Positions 12,511 to 23,938 of a stretch of DNA of 64,000 nucleotides are shown here, one piece after another. Position 1 is the first letter of the stretch. Each line of letters opens with the position of its first letter. This stretch comes from Nannochloropsis oceanica. Its lineage: Eukaryota > Sar > Eustigmatophyceae > Eustigmatales > Monodopsidaceae. The translations under genes were made by a program, and so were the position numbers. The stretch lies in contig CP038123.1 of the NCBI GenBank assembly GCA_004519485.1, forward strand, positions 276,001 through 340,000. Direction: 5' to 3'. Below the pieces are notes generated by a model, which saw only the letters and a list, made by a program, of their open reading frames with translations, ran no database searches and was not told the origin of the DNA.

Positions 12511-14722
12511 TTATCTCACCTTCCGCGTCAAATAATGGGGGGGGTCGTGCCATCTCCCGTCCAGCAGCAACTCTTTCCCCGCTAGCTGCACGCGAAGATC
12601 AAGACAGGCGGTGCTTTCCAAAGCATCTTGATCAATGCCAGGCTTGTTCTCGTAAATCTGGTATTCCTCTGAGGGCGCAAAAAAGTGAGAGGAGAAGAAA
12701 GCATTGAGTTAATTCGTGGTTCACCCGCCATAAGGAAAGGAGAAGTCTCTTGCTATTGACGGATATAAAATATAAAAAGGTACCAAAGCAACCTTCAAAG
12801 AGATTCAAAGGGTGTATACGTTTCTTCCGTCCCGCCGTACTCACCTACCTCTCAACCTTTGAGGGGTAATAATGGGCATCACTACATTCGCCCCCCGCCG
12901 CAACGCTAGCTCTCTCCCCTGTGGATCGAGGGCCTGCAATGCGGTCGTCGCCGCGATATTCACATTTCCTAGTATCAGTCTTGCGAGCGCATACATCCGT
13001 GTCGTTCGCTCCAAGAGATCTATCCTTTCCTTTTCAAGTTCTTCTGCTGAGTGGTGTTGGCGCTCAGCGAGGTAGACTTGTCCGAGCGGAGTTTTGGCTT
13101 GGACGATGTATGGACCCAGGCCAATCATGTCGGGGTCAAATTCCTGAAAGAAAGGAGAGAGAAAAAAGGGAACGAGTGCGAAAGGGTGACTCAAAGCGCT
13201 GTCAGACCCGCGTGAGCTTCCCTTCAGCGCTCCTCTCATCACCGAGGTGTGATGCTGAGCGCACCAGACTTGTCCTAGCTAAGTCTAGACAGAATTCAAA
13301 TTCAATAGAACGATTCGATGACAGAGTATTCCCTGCTATTCATATGATGAAGAGAGTAATTACCTTGAAAAACAGCAGATCGCCCGCCATGTCCTCCACA
13401 TCTTGATAGGGCACGCCGACCATCACTCCCGTCCCAACCTGGAACCCAATCCTTTTCAATTCATTCAAGCACTGCCGGCGTGATTCAAAGGAGTGAGAGG
13501 GTGGATGTAGTTTGTGATAGAGAACGGGGTTGCTTGATTCGATCCTCAGAAGATAGCGAGAGGCGCCTGCCTCGTAGAACGCTTTGTAAGTTTCTGAAGG
13601 TAGTTCCCCCAGGGACAGAGCCACGGCGAGGCCGCGCTGAGAGGAAGCTGCGAGGTTATTGGGCGTCACTGAGAGAGAAGCAGAAGGTAAGGACGAGGAA
13701 CAGGAGGGATGAACTTCGAGGTCCATTTCGACTGTGCGAAGACGGACGGCGCGGACGACGTCGAGCATGAAACTATGAGAAAAGGAGATAATAAGTAGGG
13801 ATAGAGGAAGAAGAATGACTTGTTTGAAAATCAGGTCCGGAATTGTGCCATTGTGATGAGTACTTTCACTTTTGTATCTCATTTCCCTCCTATCTCCACT
13901 TACTTGATCCGCTCAGGAGTTGGCAGTTCCCCCGATTGGAGCATAAGCGTGCCCATCCCTTGGGTGTAGGCAAATTCCGCGCAAGTCACAATTTCTTGTT
14001 TTGTCATGGTGTACCGGTGCACTTTCTGCATATTTGGAATGAGATAAAAAGGGGGTGGAAATGGGACGATGAGAGGGAGGTACACACACGGAATGCAGTG
14101 AACAGGGCCACAGTCTCTACTCCTTCTACTCTTCGCCCTCCTCCGCCTCCTCCTCACCATGTGCTTGCGGATGCCGCAGTAGAGACAATCCTTGGTACAG
14201 ACATTGCTAAACTCGACGATGCCCCTTGCATATACCTTGGACCCAAAGTATGCCGCTGTTGGGCACAGAAAGGAAAAAGAAAGGAAAGAAGGGAGGGACG
14301 AATGTGAGTTCGAAAGGCTATTTCTCTTATGTCAACCATTACTACTTGGGCAACTCTATAATCCAATTCTGCATGCACTTACTCGTTGCGGCCTCCGCGA
14401 GGGAATACAAGGCCTGTACCAAGGCACCGTCTTGCGTCGTCAATAGTTCCATCAGCTGCTCCTTGGAGAGGTCTATGATGCGCCCTGGCTCGAGTTTCTC
14501 CACCCCTAGAAAGTGCGCTAAGGGAGCAAACGAAGCTTGAGCATCGTGCTGGCATTGTGCCGTAGCGGCTGGCGGGCGAGTGCGGTGGAATGTTACAGTA
14601 GGGGGAGAGGGAGATGAGGAGGCAAGACGTTCGAGAGGGGCGACCGGGAGACGTGGACGTTTGCGAAAAAAAGCAGCAACCGTCGAACCAGTGACAGCCA
14701 CATTTTTTTTAAGAAGCAGCAT
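12511..14722 (-). CDS. HYDE: [FeFe]-hydrogenase maturase HydE (radical SAM)
   Basis: HydE is a radical-SAM enzyme that helps make the azadithiolate-bridged 2Fe subsite of the H-cluster. Six exons fit in phase: 14722-14383, 14258-14158, 14025-13904, 13772-13364, 13143-12849 and 12668-12511, giving 474 residues. Exon 2 carries the SAM cluster motif C-x3-C-x2-C as NVCTKDCLYCGIRK. Exon 3 carries TLMLQSGE. Exon 4 has the family signature GLAVALSLGELPSETYKAFY, AGASRYLLRIESSN and GTGVMVGVPYQDVEDM. Exon 5 has DMIGLGPYI and NVNIAATTALQALDP. The tail HDPPHYL is also family-like. The first 50 residues are rich in R, S, A and L without an ER-type signal, which suggests a mitochondrial leader. The start is 192 bases from the HYDG start on the other strand. 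Confidence 0.94.
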
Positions 14723-14914
14723 CGGTGTCTGTGGGGATATTGGGGCAGATCTCGTTAGAGGGTATTGTGTGATGGCGTGCTCGCGGCGGCAAAACTGTTC
14801 GGGTTGAGGCACCTCGTCGCATGTTCTCTCTGAAGCCCCTGAAGCTTTCCACTCGCTTCGAACAGACCCCACAATACAGGCCAAACACTCGCCTTCAAGT
14901 CCTCTTTCTTCAAG
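14723..14914. promoter_or_regulatory. Shared divergent promoter region HYDE / HYDG
   Basis: Only 192 bases separate the two ATG codons, which point away from each other. Both promoters and 5' UTRs must lie here or overlap the coding starts. No TATA box is evident. I found no motif of obvious length shared with the HYDA/HYDF spacer. Confidence 0.6.
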
Positions 14915-17900
14915 ATGCTGCGACTGGCGCAATGGTGCTGTCGCCCGCGCGTGAGCTCTTCCGCTGCACCATCGACGACCTCGCCGGCCCGTCTCAACCT
15001 TGCCATCTGGCCACATCAACAACGAGGACTGGCGCAGTGGTCTGTGGAAACAGAGCGCCACCACAAGTACGAGGACCCGGCCAAGATCATTGACGAGGTT
15101 GCGATCAATCGGTTACTGGAAGAGACCAAGGAAAAGGTATGGTGAGACCTGGTTTGGCTTAAATAGGATGATAGCACTTGGGATGCCAGGCACATATGGC
15201 AACCATGTGGCATCCTCACGTATGGGACAAACCCTACCACCGCGAAAAACCGCAGGCCAAGGACCCTGCGCATGTCAAGGCTATCCTTGTCGCTGCTCAA
15301 GATCGTGCCCGGCTCCAAAGTCCGCCCCCGGGGCACCCTAATGCCGACCCTCCCCTCAATGAGTTTGTGCAAGGCCTGACTTTGGAAGAGGCGGCGACAC
15401 TCTTGAATGTCGATTCGGCGGACAAGGAGATGATGCAATTATTGTACAACGCGGCGTTGAATGTAAAGCAGCAGATTTATGGTAAGTTGGTGAGGATACG
15501 GTGGGGTGTTAGATGGGGTCTTTTTTCACTCTGTTCGGAGTACTAATGAATGTCATACACAGTATCTTGTTTGACGGGTGACAGGACTGTCGGGTGCTGG
15601 ATGATGTGTTTCTTTTTTGCTTAAATGTATTCTTCCAAGCAACGTCTTACCGCTGACCGCGCGATCTACACACACCACTAGTGTAGACAGGCTACCTGCA
15701 CATATATATTTGTTTCTGACCACCACTTATTCTTGCACGATACAAACACCCACCAAAACAGGCAATCGCATCGTGCTGTTTGCTCCCGTGTATCTGGCCA
15801 ACTGGTGCGTGAACACGTGTCAGTACTGTGCCTTTCGTGGGGCCAACAAACAGATGCAACGGAGCATGTTGACCATGGATGAATTACGGTGGGTGTCCGC
15901 CCGTCTGCAATATTTCATGGAATGGCTTGGGCATTTGTTTCTTTATATCCACACTCTTCATATCCTCTTTTCCCTGAAAGCCCAAAGCTTTGTCAGGGCG
16001 GGTTTTCACCAGACCCAAATCTTGTGTTGAAAGGAGGAGATGACGGGAAAGGAGAGGTTTGCGGCGGAGCCCCATTTGCCACGTGTGTGTGGTTTTGGGT
16101 GCCTCTGATATTCTGGCATTATTTTTCAGTATTCCTTCTTTTTCTAGGTCATCTGTCTCTATTGCTCAATAGCTCTAATACTCGCGGCTTTCTCCTTCTT
16201 TTTTTCACTCGCCATTCTCTTTTCTCCTCCCTCGCTTGGGCTCTCTATCTCTCTGCCTTTCCGCAGTCAAGAAGTGGAGGCCTTGGAGGCGATTGGCCAT
16301 AAGCGGCTGTTGCTGCTTACGGGGGAGCATCCAAAGTACTCATTTGATCGATTTTTGGAAGCCGTGCAAGTGGTAAGTCGACATATCTCTTTCATTATCT
16401 TCCTTTATTTGTGGATGAAAAGAGGATATGAAAGGGGGGACGGGGGGACGGGAGCGAAAGAGACCGTATCCGTTTGACATATACTAAGCTTTGTCCGTTG
16501 ATCGTCACTTTTCTTGTTACGGGTTACGCGCGCTAGCATTGCAACTGTCCTCTCACACACATCGTCTCTCCTCCTTTAACTCCTCCTCTTCCTTCTCCTT
16601 CTCCTCCTCCAGGTGGGCACCGTCAAGACACCCAACCCTTGCGGAGAAATCCGTCGCATAAATGTCGAGATCCCCTCCTTATCCGTGTCGGACATGAAAC
16701 GGCTGAAAGCAACGCAATACATTGGTGAGAATGTTAATTTCCTTGATTCCCTCTTTTTCTCTCTGCCCCCCCCCTCGTGTAATCCCACCTTCTCTTTTGT
16801 CGTCTGACGCCCTTTCTCCCTCTTCTGCTTATGATGAAGGCACCTACACGCTTTTTCAAGAGACATATCACCGAGAGACCTTCAAAAAGATGCATCCAGG
16901 CGGACCCAAGAGCGACTATAACCACAGGTAGGACACGGAATCATGGGAGAATGGGATATAGAAGGCTTGTAAGTTTCACCACCTGGTATTCATTTCGGGG
17001 CTACATAGGCTTTTAACGATGGATCGAGCGCAATTAGGTGGCTTGGATGACGTCGGAATTGGGGCCCTCTTCGGATTGGCTGGTGAGGCAGCGAGGGAAG
17101 GGGGGAGGGAGGAAGGGAGGGAGGAGAGAGTAATTGATGTCGACTTTATTTCCACCGTGTTCTTTTCTTTTTTCATGATGTCTTCCCTCACTTTTTGCCA
17201 CTGTTTCTTCTTTCGATCCTGGCCTTCGCCTGGATCATTGCAGATTACCGCTTCGAAGTTATGGGGCTGCTGATGCACGCGCATCATCTGGATCGGACCT
17301 ACGGTACAGGGCCCCATACTATATCCATTCCACGCATGCAGCCTGCCTTAAATGCGCCTGCAGCTGAGCACATTCCTATGCCAGTGAGTGATGATGATTT
17401 CAAAAAACTTGTGGCTGTCATTCGGTGTGCGGTTCCTTATACTGGTAAGAAGAAAGACTGGTGAGAAAGAAGAAGGGATCACGAGTTTAGGCGTAGTAAA
17501 TGCCGCACCTTTCCCCTCAGCTGACTAATTCTCTGTCAAACTGGCATGCTTAACATTCACGTATGCCTATCCTCCTCCCCGTCTCCCCTCCCTCCCCAGG
17601 TATGATTCTCTCGACCCGTGAATCAGCAGCCACTCGCAGCGAGCTCCTCCGGCTGGGTATTTCTCAGATCAGTGCCGGTTCTCGAACGGATGTAGGTGCT
17701 TATCATCGCGACACCACCTGCGATGCAGCAAATTTTATCAGCAACACGGCCAGCAGCAGTAGCACAGCAGGCCGCCCTGCTAAAACACAGCTTCCTCTAG
17801 CAGCGATAGCGGCGGCGACGGCTGTACACGAGGTTGAAGAGGAGGAGGACACGGATGAGTACAAGCGGAGACGAGGGCAGTTCTCGTTGCAGGTAAGAAG

Positions 17901-18453
17901 TACATTTTGGGGTATTCAATCGTGTATGAGCTCTTTCTAAGCCGTATCCTCACATGTGGCTTGATTTCTCTCCGTCCTTCCTATGTAATTTCCCTCTCGT
18001 TCTAGGATCATCGACCCCTTGACACCGTAATCAAAGACTTGCTACATGACGGCTTCATTCCTTCCTTCTGCACGGCATGCTACCGGAAAGGGCGCACGGG
18101 AGCTGCGTTCATGAAAATTGCTAAAAGTGGACGGATCCAAGACTTTTGCCAGCCTAACGCTTTGCTCAGCCTACAGGAGTATATGGAGGTATGCAGTGAA
18201 GATGATTCTTGTATCTTGGTCGTTCATCGAAATTGCACCCTTCTCTCCACCATACTTGTGTCGATTCCCTTTTCTCAGCTTCTTTACTCTTTCTTCCTCA
18301 TCGTGCTTTTAGGATTACGCCTCTCCCCAGACGAAAGCCGTGGGCGATGAGGTAATTGCTCGGGAGAGCCAGATGATGGGCGACAATGCCAAGCGGGCTT
18401 ATGAGAGGAAGCGACAGCAGCTCTTACGAGGAAAGCGGGATCTTTACTTTTAG
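14915..18453 (+). CDS. HYDG: [FeFe]-hydrogenase maturase HydG (radical SAM tyrosine lyase)
   Basis: HydG cleaves tyrosine to supply the CO and CN ligands of the H-cluster as an Fe(CO)2CN synthon. Eleven exons fit in phase: 14915-15136, 15256-15481, 15762-15888, 16267-16372, 16613-16724, 16840-16927, 17009-17082, 17244-17444, 17600-17892, 18006-18188 and 18313-18453, giving 590 residues. The radical-SAM motif is CVNTCQYC. Other family blocks are LLLLTGEHP, TLFQETYHRETF, GGPKSDYNHR, DDVGIGALFGL and QISAGSRTDVG. The C-terminal auxiliary cluster motif C-x2-C-x22-C (FCTACYRKGRTG and DFCQPNAL) is intact, so the protein should be active. Between the core and that motif is a species-specific acidic, Ala/Ser-rich insert. 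The N-terminus (MLRLAQWCCRPRVSSSAAPS) is mitochondrial-like. An AATAAA-like signal lies at about 18522. Confidence 0.95.
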
Positions 18454-18613
18454 GTGTGGAAGAAAAGAAACATGGATAAATATGTGAAAGAGAGGGATAA
18501 GTATGTAGATCTCTGTAAAATGAATAAAGACGGGAAAGGTATCGGAGACAAATGAAACCTCTGAAAGCTATCTGACTTCCTTTGTCACTCGTGTTATTCG
18601 TGTATCGTTCTAT
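18454..18613. other. Convergent spacer HYDG / HYDA
   Basis: 160 bases separate the two stop codons. AATAAAG near 18520 could serve HYDG polyadenylation. The transcripts probably overlap at their 3' ends. Confidence 0.45.
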
Positions 18614-21168
18614 TTATTTAGTGTCTTGCGACCGATCTGTGTATTGAGTATGTAACAGCTGATGGCTCAAGTGTCCCCCTGGTTCACCTAACGCCTCTTG
18701 ATATAATTTCTTGATGCTCGGGTTCTCGTGACTTTTCCTTATCGCGCTCTCCACATCTAAATTATACACATGTGCAATCCTCTTCTGAAGCACAAACGGA
18801 TCGTCGCTCTTGCTTTGCCCGCCTCCCCCTATGCATCCTCCCCTACAAGCCATCACCTCAACGAAGTCAAACTGTGCCGATTCATCCCCGGACTTCATCC
18901 TCTCCAGCAATGCCCGCGTTTCTGCCGTCCCATGCACGACCCCCACACGAACCACAGCCCCCGGTCCCTTCCCATCTGGATTCGGAATACACACCCGCGC
19001 GGACTTCACGCCCTGCAGCCCTCTGATATCACTCATCTCAATTTTTGGCAATGGCTGCCCTCCCGATGCAAGCTCATAAGCTGTTCGCAACGCCGCTTCC
19101 ATTACCCCTCCCGTCGCCCCGAATAATACCGCAGCCCCTGTGCTCTCCCCTAGCGGATCATCAGGAGCCTGTGATTCCAAAGCAGGAAGAGAGATCTTGT
19201 GCAATCGAAACAGGCGTCCGATCTCTCGCGTGGTTAGGACGTAATCGTTGTTGGGCACCGTCGTATCGAGCTTAGCGGAGTAGGTGGCGGCTCGATCGGC
19301 AGGGCGATGCGCTTCTCCCTTCTTCGCAGTGCAGGGCATTATGCTAACATTGACTACATCTGCAGGGTCGCGTCCTACGCGAGGCGCCCACACATTTTTA
19401 ACCGCTGCCCCCATCATCCCTTGAGGAGATTTGCAGCTCGATAAATGAGGAATTAGATAAGGGTAGTTTTTTTCAACCAAATTGATCCACCCAGGGCAAC
19501 AAGAAGTGAACATGGGAAGAGGTCCTGCGCCCGGCTCTTTCTTGAGACGGGAAAGAAATTCAGTCCCTTCCTCCATAATGGTCAAGTCAGCGGCAAAGTT
19601 CGTGTCGAACACATAGTCGAATCCTAGCTGCTTCAGACCGACGACGATCTGTCCCATGGAGATCCTGCCAGGAGGAAGATCGAATTCTTCGCTGATCGCC
19701 ACGCGAACTGAGGGGGCCACTGCAGCGACCTTCACTACCTCCTTATTTTGCAAAGCATCAATGACATGAAAAAGATCGTGGCGCTCACGCATGGCACCCG
19801 TGGGGCAGACGGCGACGCACTGGGGTAAGGGTAGGAGAGATGATAGTTGGATTGAGCTTATCATCAGAACTTGGGTAGTCAATGCGCACGATCAAGATAT
19901 GAACACAACAAGGACGACCAAGCCACACCTGCACTTTGAAAAATTGATTTCAATATGTGTAATTTAAAAAAAAGCAGGATTCACACATGACGAGGGCAGC
20001 CACATTCCATCTCTCTGCCTTTCCTTCTCTTGAGTCCCTTACCTGACCGCACTCGATGCATTTGGTTTGATCGAATGGCAAGCCCTGCATGGTAGACAAA
20101 TGCATGTCCGCGCCACGACCTACAAAACCAATCGCTCCGACCCCTTGAATCTTCTGGCAGACTGCCACACACCGCCCGCACTTGACACATTTGTCTGGAT
20201 CAAAAGTAATGGCGCCATAGGGTGTGTCTTTTGAGGGAGCGGGTGTTTGGCTGTCAGTGGGCGTACCAATGCTAGCCCCACCGTCCCATTCGTGGTGGTG
20301 TTCAAAATTCTTGCGAATCTCTGTGGGGGCAATGTCCTCAACCTGTTGGGAGGAACGAAGGGGGGAGAAGTGAGGGAGAGGGATTATTAGTGGTGCGGCG
20401 AACGACATGTACGCTTCGGAAACTAGGCGCACTTATACGAAAGAATACAAGACAGAGGATGACAAGTCCGACAAAGAAATGTATTGAGCGCTCCTAGATC
20501 TAATGGAAGAGAGAAAGCACGCACACACTTCTACAAGGAAGGAACCAATAGACGTTCTCACTCTTATCACATACCTGATAACGGTACAGCAAGTCCTGAA
20601 ATGTACAATTCCCATCGGCATCACATGTTTGACAAGTGTTGGGATGTTTGGCCCGCATAAGCTGGAGAATAAAACGCACGTTCTCCAGGACATCTGGCGA
20701 ATGTGTGTGGATGCGTTGTCCCTCCTTTACTTGGGTAATGCACGCCGGGACAAGCTTACTCATTGGCACAAGCTTTTCGACCCTCCTTGCATCCGTAGGT
20801 GAAGCGGGGCCTACCACCTTCTTCGTGCCTTGGCCTGTCTCGAGCTCCACCAAGCAAATACGGCATGTTGCGCAGGCAGGGATGGAAGGGTGGGCGCAAA
20901 GCGTGGGCACAAACGCCCCTGCAGCCCGCGCAGCCTCGAGAATGGTGGCATAGGCGGGCACGGCAATGCTCCGGCCATTGATTTCTACATTTACCAGCTG
21001 CTCTTCTGCAGGAAATGTGGCGGTGGGTGAGGTGGTGGGGATGGCAGGGGGTGTAGTCGAGAAGGAAGCAGCAGCAAAGGTACGGGGCTTGGGAAGGCGG
21101 CGCAATGCAGCAGCGGAGGCAGCCGTCGGCCCAATTCGAGCCCATGCGAATAAGAAGGGGCCAAGCAT
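18614..21168 (-). CDS. HYDA: [FeFe]-hydrogenase with full accessory Fe-S domain set (M3 type)
   Basis: Reversible H2 production and oxidation at a 6Fe H-cluster. Three exons fit in phase: 21168-20575, 20342-20043 and 19819-18614, giving 699 residues. In order: a leader of about 60 residues (MLGPFLFAWARIGPTAAS), a [2Fe-2S] domain (TLC, ATCRICLVE, PACITQV), the His-Cys3 [4Fe-4S] site HPNTCQTCDADGNC, two [4Fe-4S] sites (CVKCGRCVAVC and CIECGQ joined to CVAVCPTGAM), then the H-domain. H-cluster motifs are complete: L1 FTSCCPGWI, L2 MPCTAKKGEA, L3 EVMACRGGCIGGGGQ. The small-subunit-like tail ends HLSHQLLHTQY. This is the layout of clostridial CpI. Green-algal HydA enzymes lack the accessory domains. 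The earlier GTG at 21213 was not used because an in-frame ATG follows. Confidence 0.96.
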
Positions 21169-21307
21169 GGTCGGTGGAGCCTGTGCGATTGCGGGATTTG
21201 GGCGTGCGGGCACGCGGGAAGGTCAATGAGCGTCTCAGTAGCAGAGAAAAACAGAGCGATACATCGGTTCAACTTCCGAGTCATGGGCTGGGCTTTAAAC
21301 TTGGATC
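21169..21307. promoter_or_regulatory. Shared divergent promoter region HYDA / HYDF
   Basis: About 140 bases lie between the HYDA ATG and the preferred HYDF ATG. If HYDF instead starts at 21493 the spacer is 324 bases. This second divergent hydrogenase pair mirrors HYDE/HYDG. Confidence 0.55.
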
Positions 21308-23938
21308 ATGCCTATCTTGGCCATAAGATCACGCCACCCACTCCACACGCTACAGGCCATGCCGCCACGCAGTTTCTTTATAGGGTCGTCTTCTTGGGGT
21401 TGGTACCGGGAAGGGATGAGACATGGGCGATCACTACCCAGGTAAGTTTGGGATAGGTGGAAGGCTTTCTGTTGAAGAAGAGCGGCATTCGCATGGTCCT
21501 TGGCCTCATCAAGCTGCCAGGGCCGTACACGTCCAAATTGCTCAGGCCATCACGGCCTATATACGACACCTCCCTCGACAGAGCCTCGTCCTTGTCGCCC
21601 TTCTTCGCATCGCCTTGTGCGTCTTTGTGCTCCTGCAGCACCAATTCCTCCTCCTCGTCCTCCTCCTTCAGCACCACTTCCTCCTCCTATTCTTCTGGTC
21701 TACACCGTCTCCTCCTCGGCTTAGTCGGAGAGATGAATGCCGGCAAGTCCACAGTTCTCAATGCCTTGACGCAACAAGCTACAAGTATCGTTGATGCCAC
21801 GCCTGGGACAACATCAGATATCAAGACAGCCATCATGGAAATACATGGTTTGGGGCCGATCAAACTACTAGATACAGCAGGTGTGGATGACACGGGACGA
21901 CTGGGAGATAAGAAGAGGAATAAGACATGGGAGGCAATGCGGGAAGTGGACGCGGCACTCGTGGTGATAGAGCCCTTTAACAAAGCAAAGGTGGCGACTC
22001 AAGGGATGGATGAAGAGGAAGGACGTGCAGGAAGAAGAAGGGTGGCAGAAACGGCTGTGGAGGAGGAGAAGCCCGTATCACCGCCATCAGCAACAGCAGT
22101 AGCAGGAGCAGTAGCAGTCGGATCAGCACGATCACTATATGTGGCAGGGACAGCAGGAAAAGCAGCTGCAGGGAGAACGCCAGTGGTGCCGGTTGCTTGT
22201 ACAGCCTCCTCTGCCTCCCTCCCTCTTCTCATTTCCCTTGTTCGAAGCATGGCCAAGCGACGCCGTCCCTCCATGCTCATCTTCAATATTAAGAATGACG
22301 AACGAGAGAAATTTATGCGGCGAATTGGCGATGGGAGGGAAGGGGGGGGGGAGTGGAGGTTGGTGGAGGAGTTGTGTGCGTCAATTGAGGGGGAAATTCG
22401 GAAGGCAGTGACAGAAGAAACCAGAGGAGGAGGACAAGGAGGAGGCGTGATGCATCCGAGCAGCAGCAACAATAGCAAGATCAACAACAACAGCAGCTGC
22501 AGCAGCAATGGTTTTAAGTGCGGCACCAGCATCAGCACAGAGCACCCTCCTCCCAACCTCCTCCTCCCTTCCTTTACTGCGGACTTCACCTCCCCCAATG
22601 CCGGCAAAGCCCTCGCTCTCCACCTCGCCCATACCCTCCATCAATCTACCTTCTCCTCAACAGTAACAGCAGCAGCAGCAGCAGCGACAGGGGATGAAGA
22701 CTGTCCTCTTCTTCCCCTTCAGTACCACCAGGGGAACAAGCTCGTTTTGATGAACATTCCCATGGACGCCGAAACACCCCAAACACGGCTCTTGCGTCCT
22801 CCATCTTTGCTGCAAGCTTACTGTCTGCATCATTTTATACCCACCTTGGCCTACCGGATGGACTTGAAAAAAGCCCGTGCTACTGCTGCTGCTGCTGCTG
22901 CTGTTGTTTCCGCCCCTTCTTTATCTCCTATATCTTCACAACAACATCGATCGAAGGATCAGGAAGAGGAGAAAAGGAAGTTTTTAGATATCCTCGCCCT
23001 CCTCCCCCCGGGAAGCTTGGTGGTCACAGACTCCCAAGCCGTCGACATCGTCCACAGGTGAAGGGAGTTGGGGGGAGGGAGGGAGTCAGGGAGGGGGAGT
23101 CAGAGGCAACGTTCTCGTCTCGATTGGTTGGGGCGTGGATCTAAGATAGAAGAGCATTCTCCTCATCCAGCCTCTTTCGTCTTTCTTTCCATCCTTCCCT
23201 GTCTTCCTTAGCTGGACTTCACACAAGCCCGTGGACATTACTACATTTAGCATCATCATGATCCAACACATGAGCGGTGGAAAACTTCAGACCTTTATTG
23301 ATGGGATCGAACGACTGGTAGAGCTCGAAGGAAGGAAAGGGGAAGAAGGAAGGGAGGGAGGAAGGAAAGCCCGGGTGCTGATAGCCGAGGCCTGTAATCA
23401 TGTCAGAATCCCAGAGGCGTGTGACGATATTGGTTTAATTCAATTACCCAAAGCTATTAAAAAAGCGTTCGCGAACGTTTCCCTTCAGATCGATCACGCG
23501 TATGGCCGTGAATTTCCATTCGAGGGCTTGAGCAAGCGAGAAGGAGTGAGAGAGGGAGGATGGGAAGAAGGAAGAGGGATATATGATGTGGTAGTGCATT
23601 GTGGGGGGTGCATGATCGATCGGCAGAAGATAAGGGCACGGATGGAAGAGTGTGAGGAGGCGGGAGTGGCGATGACGAATTATGGGTTGTTGTTAGCGTA
23701 TGCGGCAGGACCTGCCGCATTTTTACGGGCGATCAAGCCTTTCAATGTACTAGTGCCACCGAGATTATTGAAGCATGCGTTGGCATTGGAAAAGAAGAAG
23801 AGGGAGAGGACGGGTGATGATGCGGATGAAGGGGAGACACAGGGAGGGAACGATGGAGCACAATCGTGCATGATTTCGGCTTGTGCGTTATGTCTGGGGG
23901 ATTACGGTGGTGGTGGTGCGACGAAAAAGGGTATTTGA
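21308..23938 (+). CDS. HYDF: [FeFe]-hydrogenase maturation GTPase HydF
   Basis: HydF is the GTPase and [4Fe-4S] scaffold on which the 2Fe subsite is assembled and passed to HydA. Preferred model: exons 21308-21441, 21546-23057 and 23212-23938, giving 790 residues. The first intron has a perfect GTAAGT donor and keeps phase. The alternative is a start at 21493 with no first intron. The G1 P-loop is GEMNAGKST, G2 lies in DATPGTTSD, G3 is DTAGVDD, and the G4 region reads IFNIKND rather than a strict NKxD. The C-terminal cluster domain has EACNH and HCGGCM, matching the C-x-H and H-C-x2-C ligands, followed by TNYGLLLAYA. Low-complexity inserts (Ala/Val/Gly, Ser/Asn, Gly/Glu/Arg) separate the blocks and make the protein much longer than the roughly 400-residue bacterial form. 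Confidence 0.93.

What the first reader, a model, noticed from the sequence alone, without database searches (positions are those of the whole stretch)
12511..23938. Complete [FeFe]-hydrogenase locus HYDE-HYDG-HYDA-HYDF as two divergent pairs
All four genes needed for an active [FeFe]-hydrogenase lie next to each other within 11.4 kb: E and G head to head (192 bases), A and F head to head (about 140 bases), G and A tail to tail (160 bases). Each gene keeps its diagnostic residues. Gene clusters for one enzyme and all its maturases are expected in bacteria, and in green algae only partial linkage (HydEF with HydG) is known to me. Hydrogenase genes have, as far as I recall, been noted in Nannochloropsis, but this arrangement deserves description.
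Basis: partly seen in the sequence, partly recalled or inferred. Interest (0 to 1): 0.92.

Follow-up and report, generated by a model that had tools for sequence, protein, structure and literature searches.

The report
Known algal hydrogenase gene cluster, confirmed
Four neighbouring genes of a tiny ocean alga encode a hydrogen-making enzyme and the three helper proteins that build its metal centre; the cluster was already published, but its head-to-head helper pair looks old rather than recently taken from bacteria, and the enzyme may sit in mitochondria rather than chloroplasts.

Summary
In detail: HYDE(-), HYDG(+), HYDA(-) and HYDF(+) lie side by side at 12511-23938, with introns, open frames and the motifs checked. 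HYDA, HYDG and HYDF were found once each; HYDE was not searched separately. One detail is off: the HYDA/HYDF start gap is 324 bases by the conserved frames, not about 140. The genome is Nannochloropsis oceanica (HYDG identity). The cluster was published for this species in 2012 with methyl-viologen-dependent H2 release, and noted in N. gaditana; Volvox and Acanthamoeba clusters are also in print. So it is not new. Beyond those passages: (1) HYDE and HYDG fall in well-supported clades whose named members are all eukaryotes, against recent bacterial transfer; (2) the E/G pair has the same head-to-head strands as HYDEF/HYDG in Volvox, while 49 of 49 bacterial loci holding both (of 80 fetched) have them on one strand; (3) HYDA, HYDG and HYDF lack the usual ochrophyte plastid signal and PFO and PFL were not found, so a mitochondrial enzyme is a live, unproven reading.

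The parts
12511..14722 (-). HYDE, radical-SAM maturase, 473 aa, exons 14722-14383, 14255-14158, 14025-13904, 13772-13364, 13143-12849, 12668-12511
   Evidence: TIGR03956 319.9 bits, cut-off 254.6; CX3CX2C
14723..14914 (.). 192-base spacer between the divergent HYDE and HYDG starts (possible shared promoter region)
   Evidence: no word above chance shared with the other spacer
14915..18453 (+). HYDG, radical-SAM maturase, 590 aa, exons 14915-15136, 15256-15481, 15762-15888, 16267-16372, 16613-16724, 16840-16927, 17009-17082, 17244-17444, 17600-17892, 18006-18188, 18313-18453
   Evidence: no mismatch to N. oceanica P0121, which lacks 28 residues; TIGR03955 501.6 bits, cut-off 312.15
18614..21168 (-). 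HYDA, [FeFe]-hydrogenase with accessory (F) cluster domain, 699 aa, exons 21168-20575, 20342-20043, 19819-18614
   Evidence: TIGR02512 472.1 bits, cut-off 405.95
21169..21492 (.). 324-base spacer between the divergent HYDA and HYDF starts
21493..23938 (+). HYDF, maturation GTPase, 763 aa, exons 21493-23057, 23212-23938, with long low-complexity inserts
   Evidence: PF18133 95.4 bits and MMR_HSR1 67.4 bits on its pieces; best PDB match 5lad, there named putative GTP-binding protein, a HydF by recall; motifs; TIGR03918 221.4 bits, under its cut-off of 325.55

Best explanation
This is the nuclear [FeFe]-hydrogenase locus of Nannochloropsis oceanica, already published as a cluster. HYDG and HYDE (radical-SAM enzymes) make the CO/CN and dithiolate ligands of the two-iron centre, HYDF carries the precursor and hands it to HYDA, which reduces protons to H2; electrons enter HYDA through its own chain of accessory clusters (motifs for one [2Fe-2S] and three [4Fe-4S]). 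These steps are established for the families (general knowledge); that the proteins do so here is inferred from intact motifs plus the published methyl-viologen-dependent H2 release. The E/G half is an old eukaryotic gene pair, not a recent bacterial operon (inferred from trees and strands). Joint switching-on under anoxia from the two spacers is inferred, not shown.
For: Models and motifs; family scores; species by HYDG identity and a 29.26 Mb genome in 32 contigs; one place each for HYDA, HYDG, HYDF; prior report with activity assay, and a published table listing HYDA, HYDE, HYDF, HYDG for N. oceanica (PMC8003979). HYDE lies in a clade of 46 rows (SH-aLRT 100) and of 16 rows (100/98), HYDG in one of 23 rows (99), whose named members are all eukaryotes. 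49 of 49 bacterial loci with E and G have them on one strand; Volvox has HYDEF(-) and HYDG(+) head to head, 425 bases apart by its Table 2.
Against: HYDF is below the curated NCBIfam cut-off (221.4 of 325.55 bits), probably because of its inserts. HYDE copy number was not searched on its own. H2 release needed an artificial donor and was assayed in the dark, so a role in vivo is open. No transcript data. Some rows of the eukaryote clades are unnamed, and deep branches are unresolved, so transfer between eukaryotes is not excluded. HYDA placement is weak (82).
Confidence: 0.9

Rival explanations
1. Hydrogenase in mitochondria: the four proteins are imported into the mitochondrion, and HYDA, with its NuoG-like N-terminal cluster domain, is fed by mitochondrial ferredoxin or by NADH through the complex I 51K/24K module.
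For: HYDG of N. oceanica and N. gaditana starts with an Arg-rich stretch without acidic residues in the first 40; HYDA likewise has none there and contains RTFAAASFST. Maximum hydropathy is 0.29-1.58 in the 4 HYD proteins against 1.88-2.63 in 7 light-harvesting controls; the AF motif is in 7 of 7 controls and 1 of 4 HYD proteins. No match for PFO or PFL, as in a published table for N. oceanica (no PFO, no PFLA). In core chlorophytes maturases are generally and long HydA often predicted mitochondrial (PMC12924338); in Acanthamoeba all are so predicted and one HydF peptide was found in mitochondria (PMC3785491).
Against: No trained predictor was run; helical moment does not exceed shuffles (20th to 87th percentile; the highest, 95th, is a plastid control); HYDE has AAF at residue 16; HYDF has two acidic residues and is unclear. 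Absence of a plastid signal is weak: for 30% of known plastid proteins of this species HECTAR found no signal peptide. For two controls I chose a later Met by eye. No mitochondrial control set was obtained.
Confidence: 0.5
2. Hydrogenase in the plastid, fed by photosynthetic ferredoxin, as for HYDA1/2 of Chlamydomonas.
For: Short HydA of green algae is plastidial (passages); HYDE has an AAF motif near its start. The published assay ran in the dark, so light-driven H2 was not excluded.
Against: HYDA, HYDG and HYDF lack the hydrophobic start plus AF motif of 7 of 7 controls, with the HECTAR caveat above; this HYDA is of the long type.
Confidence: 0.33
3. Recent horizontal transfer of a bacterial hydrogenase operon, as Vieler et al. 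suggested.
For: Clustering itself; no HYDEF fusion.
Against: HYDE and HYDG trees, HYDE next to the brown alga Discosporangium (97; 99/99); introns (E 5, G 10, A 2, F 1); none of 49 bacterial loci has E and G on opposite strands. HYDA is less clear: joined to green-algal long HydA with support 82, on a long stem.
Confidence: 0.05
4. The two divergent pairs have no regulatory meaning: the genes stay neighbours by chance or low recombination in a compact genome.
For: No shared spacer word above shuffles (one 9-mer, 0.54 expected).
Against: Same E/G strands in Volvox; neighbour status inferred by eye for other algae from record names or equal contig lengths.
Confidence: 0.25

Closest known systems
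Nannochloropsis oceanica CCMP1779 HYD cluster (Vieler et al. 2012, PMC3499364, passages)
   Same: Same species; one hydA with hydE, hydF, hydG directly up- and downstream; E and F not fused
   Different: The passages seen give no exon coordinates, strands, spacer lengths or protein location; its Table S11 was not seen; the strain may differ
N. gaditana HYD cluster (papers not held; known here only as cited)
   Same: HYDG 89% identical over 547 columns, HYDE 76% over 75% of the query
   Different: Its order and strands could not be read here
Volvox carteri HYDA1/HYDA2/HYDEF/HYDG cluster (PMC4416025, passages)
   Same: HYDEF(-) and HYDG(+) head to head
   Different: HYDE and HYDF fused; two HYDA genes lacking F domains; about 57 kb
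Acanthamoeba castellanii HYD region (PMC3785491, one section and passages)
   Same: Hydrogenase and all three maturases in one region; mitochondrial N-termini predicted
   Different: About 50 kb with 11 other predicted genes; PFO present
Bacterial hyd loci (80 kept of 584 confirmed, a capped list)
   Same: E, F, G and sometimes A near each other
   Different: E and G on one strand in 49 of 49 loci that hold both

Membership tests
[FeFe]-hydrogenase, group A | H-cluster motifs L1, L2, L3 | tested here: met
   motif definitions recalled
[FeFe]-hydrogenase, group A | score over curated cut-off of TIGR02512 | tested here: met
   472.1 against 405.95 bits
[FeFe]-hydrogenase, group A | proton reduction by the matured protein | not testable with these tools
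   cell activity with artificial donor is in Vieler et al.
NADH-dependent group A6 hydrogenase | score over curated cut-off of NF040763 | tested here: not met
   best-scoring family, but 673.9 against 765 bits; not filed as A6
HydG | TIGR03955 cut-off, CX3CX2C, C-terminal CX2C | tested here: met
HydE | TIGR03956 cut-off, CX3CX2C | tested here: met
HydF | GTPase domain, HydF tetramer domain, CxH and HCxxC | tested here: met
HydF | score over curated cut-off of TIGR03918 (a naming threshold) | tested here: not met
   221.4 against 325.55 bits; it has the domains and ligand motifs of HydF but would not be auto-named by this model
Bacterial-type operon | genes on one strand | tested here: not met
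   strands alternate
Hydrogenosome-type H2 pathway | PFO (or PFL) feeding the pathway | tested here: not met
   no match for PF01558, PF01855, PF02901; the search is exon by exon and its controls are prokaryotes; published table agrees for PFO and PFLA
Mitochondrial targeting | presequence called by a trained predictor or shown by tagging | not testable with these tools
   only crude composition tests

The most novel reading that the evidence does not exclude
The head-to-head HYDE-HYDG pair is an ancestral eukaryotic (at least pan-algal) gene pair kept across glaucophyte, red, green and stramenopile lineages, and in Nannochloropsis it serves a mitochondrial, PFO-independent long-type hydrogenase of a photosynthetic stramenopile.
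Probability: 0.33. Interest if true: 0.6.

Novelty: already known. Interest (0 to 1): 0.33.

Why it matters
The cluster itself is known. What would matter is a correction to its story: the proposal in print of a recent bacterial acquisition is not borne out by the maturase trees or strand order, and if the enzyme is mitochondrial and has no PFO partner, its electron source differs from that of the model green algae, which bears on plans for light-driven H2 from this alga.

Tried and rejected
Spacer motifs: mono-nucleotide shuffles show no shared word above chance. Mitochondrial controls: Cpn60, citrate synthase and ATP synthase loci gave no clear uninterrupted mitochondrial N-terminus, so there is no mitochondrial control set. 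Plastid controls: of 36 light-harvesting matches 12 loci were fetched; 9 were translated; 7 were used; L016 and L018 were dropped (no visible start); L013, L015 and L017 were never translated. In L009 and L011 I took a later in-frame Met because the expected signal followed it, which favours the contrast.

First HYDG model (612 aa) had a wrong exon 2 start; it was the query and was corrected from P0121 and P0122. Trees used hand-picked rows: HYDE, 89 of 120 listed proteins (P0242 dropped by hand for a second domain and low coverage, P0331-P0360 left out), 28 of 120 and 15 of 46 extracted bacterial HYDE; HYDG, 50 of 120, 22 of 120 and 22 of 80 loci; HYDA, 40 of 120. Searches are quick searches without bootstrap. 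A Kiritimatiellota source of eukaryotic HYDE, suggested by high tblastn scores, was dropped: those scores merge two queries and may come wholly from the bacterial one, and the tree puts these rows among bacteria.

Neighbour status in other algae was read by eye from locus tags or equal contig lengths, not computed and not checked on DNA. I found no earlier statement of a mitochondrial site in Nannochloropsis in the listings or the passages read; the papers listed only were not opened, supplements could not be read, subscription papers are not covered. Searches returned nothing.
Full report
What is there. The window lies in a 29.26 Mb genome of 32 contigs; by their ATP synthase genes I read C31 as mitochondrial and C32 as plastid. 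Spliced models made by hand give HYDE on minus (12511-14722), HYDG on plus (14915-18453), HYDA on minus (18614-21168) and HYDF on plus (21493-23938), each a single open frame across GT-AG introns (5, 10, 2 and 1). The spliced HYDG (590 aa) agrees at every aligned residue with an annotated N. oceanica protein (P0121), which lacks 28 residues. N. gaditana HYDG is 89% identical over 547 columns (86% with the faulty first model) and HYDE 76% over 75% of the query. So the species is N. oceanica.

Are the genes intact? By motif, yes. HYDA has the three H-cluster motifs and ligand motifs for one [2Fe-2S] and three [4Fe-4S] accessory clusters; Pfam finds Fer2-type, NADH-G_4Fe-4S_3, Fer4-type and both hydrogenase domains on its pieces. 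HYDG, HYDE and HYDA (group A) exceed curated NCBIfam cut-offs; HYDF does not (221.4 of 325.55 bits), but its pieces exceed Pfam cut-offs for the tetramer and GTPase domains and it matches solved relatives. Copies: HYDA has one full-length match plus two weak matches in one region of C30 that I take for a NAR1-type paralogue (recalled); all 11 HYDG matches are its own exons; HYDF has one. HYDE was not searched separately.

What was known. Seen: passages of PMC3499364, PMC3897525, PMC4416025, PMC8003979, PMC12924338, and of PMC3785491 passages and one section. They report the N. oceanica cluster without HYDEF fusion, H2 only with methyl viologen in a dark assay, the suggestion of recent transfer, F clusters in the N. 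gaditana enzyme, clusters in Volvox and Acanthamoeba, a table with HYDA, HYDE, HYDF and HYDG but neither PFO nor PFLA for N. oceanica, and prediction of maturases (generally) and long HydA (often) as mitochondrial in core chlorophytes. The N. gaditana papers were not held.

Origin. HYDE sits in a clade of 46 rows (SH-aLRT 100) and 16 rows (100/98), next to the brown alga Discosporangium (97; 99/99). HYDG sits in a clade of 23 rows (99). All named members are eukaryotes; some rows are unnamed. HYDA joins green-algal long HydA with support 82 only, on a long stem. Leger et al. did not reject eukaryote monophyly of the maturases. This speaks against a recent bacterial source for the maturases; for HYDA the question is open.

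Order. Of 80 bacterial loci kept from a capped list, 49 hold E and G within the flanks, all on one strand; 12 hold A and F, 11 on one strand. Volvox has HYDEF 1,498,998-1,508,353 (-) and HYDG 1,508,779-1,513,243 (+). Strands are unknown there. So the E/G half looks old; I have no second example of the A/F pair.

Location and electrons. Seven light-harvesting controls of the same genome show a hydrophobic start plus AF motif; HYDA, HYDG and HYDF do not, HYDE has AAF at residue 16. Helical moment gave no support. In print, HECTAR found no signal peptide in 30% of known plastid proteins of this species, so absence is weak evidence. PFO (two domains) and PFL had no match, while the same searches rang in 11, 10 and 3 of 14 prokaryote controls; intron-rich genes score weakly here (the complex I 51K gene gave three fragments, best E 2.5e-7). 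Besides HYDA one NuoG-like locus was found. I put 0.5 on a mitochondrial site.

Verdict. Real, intact by sequence, already published in this species. Added here: exact models, evidence against recent transfer of the maturases, the Volvox-like E/G orientation, and a testable mitochondrial reading.

Noticed in passing
window 6754-9219 (-): The open frame beyond HYDE encodes a Zn(2)-Cys(6) cluster (PF00172, 21.9 bits, cut-off 21); a possible regulator beside the cluster.
   Followed up: partly
window 9384-10880 (-): Open frame whose later part looks by eye like a degenerate receiver domain; no Pfam match. It may belong to the same gene as the Zn cluster.
   Followed up: no
L116, L117: Kiritimatiellota loci with order F-G-E on one strand; the HydE tree puts them among bacteria.
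   Followed up: yes
P0121: The public N. oceanica HYDG record lacks the CVNTCQYC radical-SAM motif because 28 residues are missing from its annotation.
   Followed up: yes
G000:C30:28970-30142: Weak HYDA matches, probably a NAR1-type paralogue (recalled).
   Followed up: no
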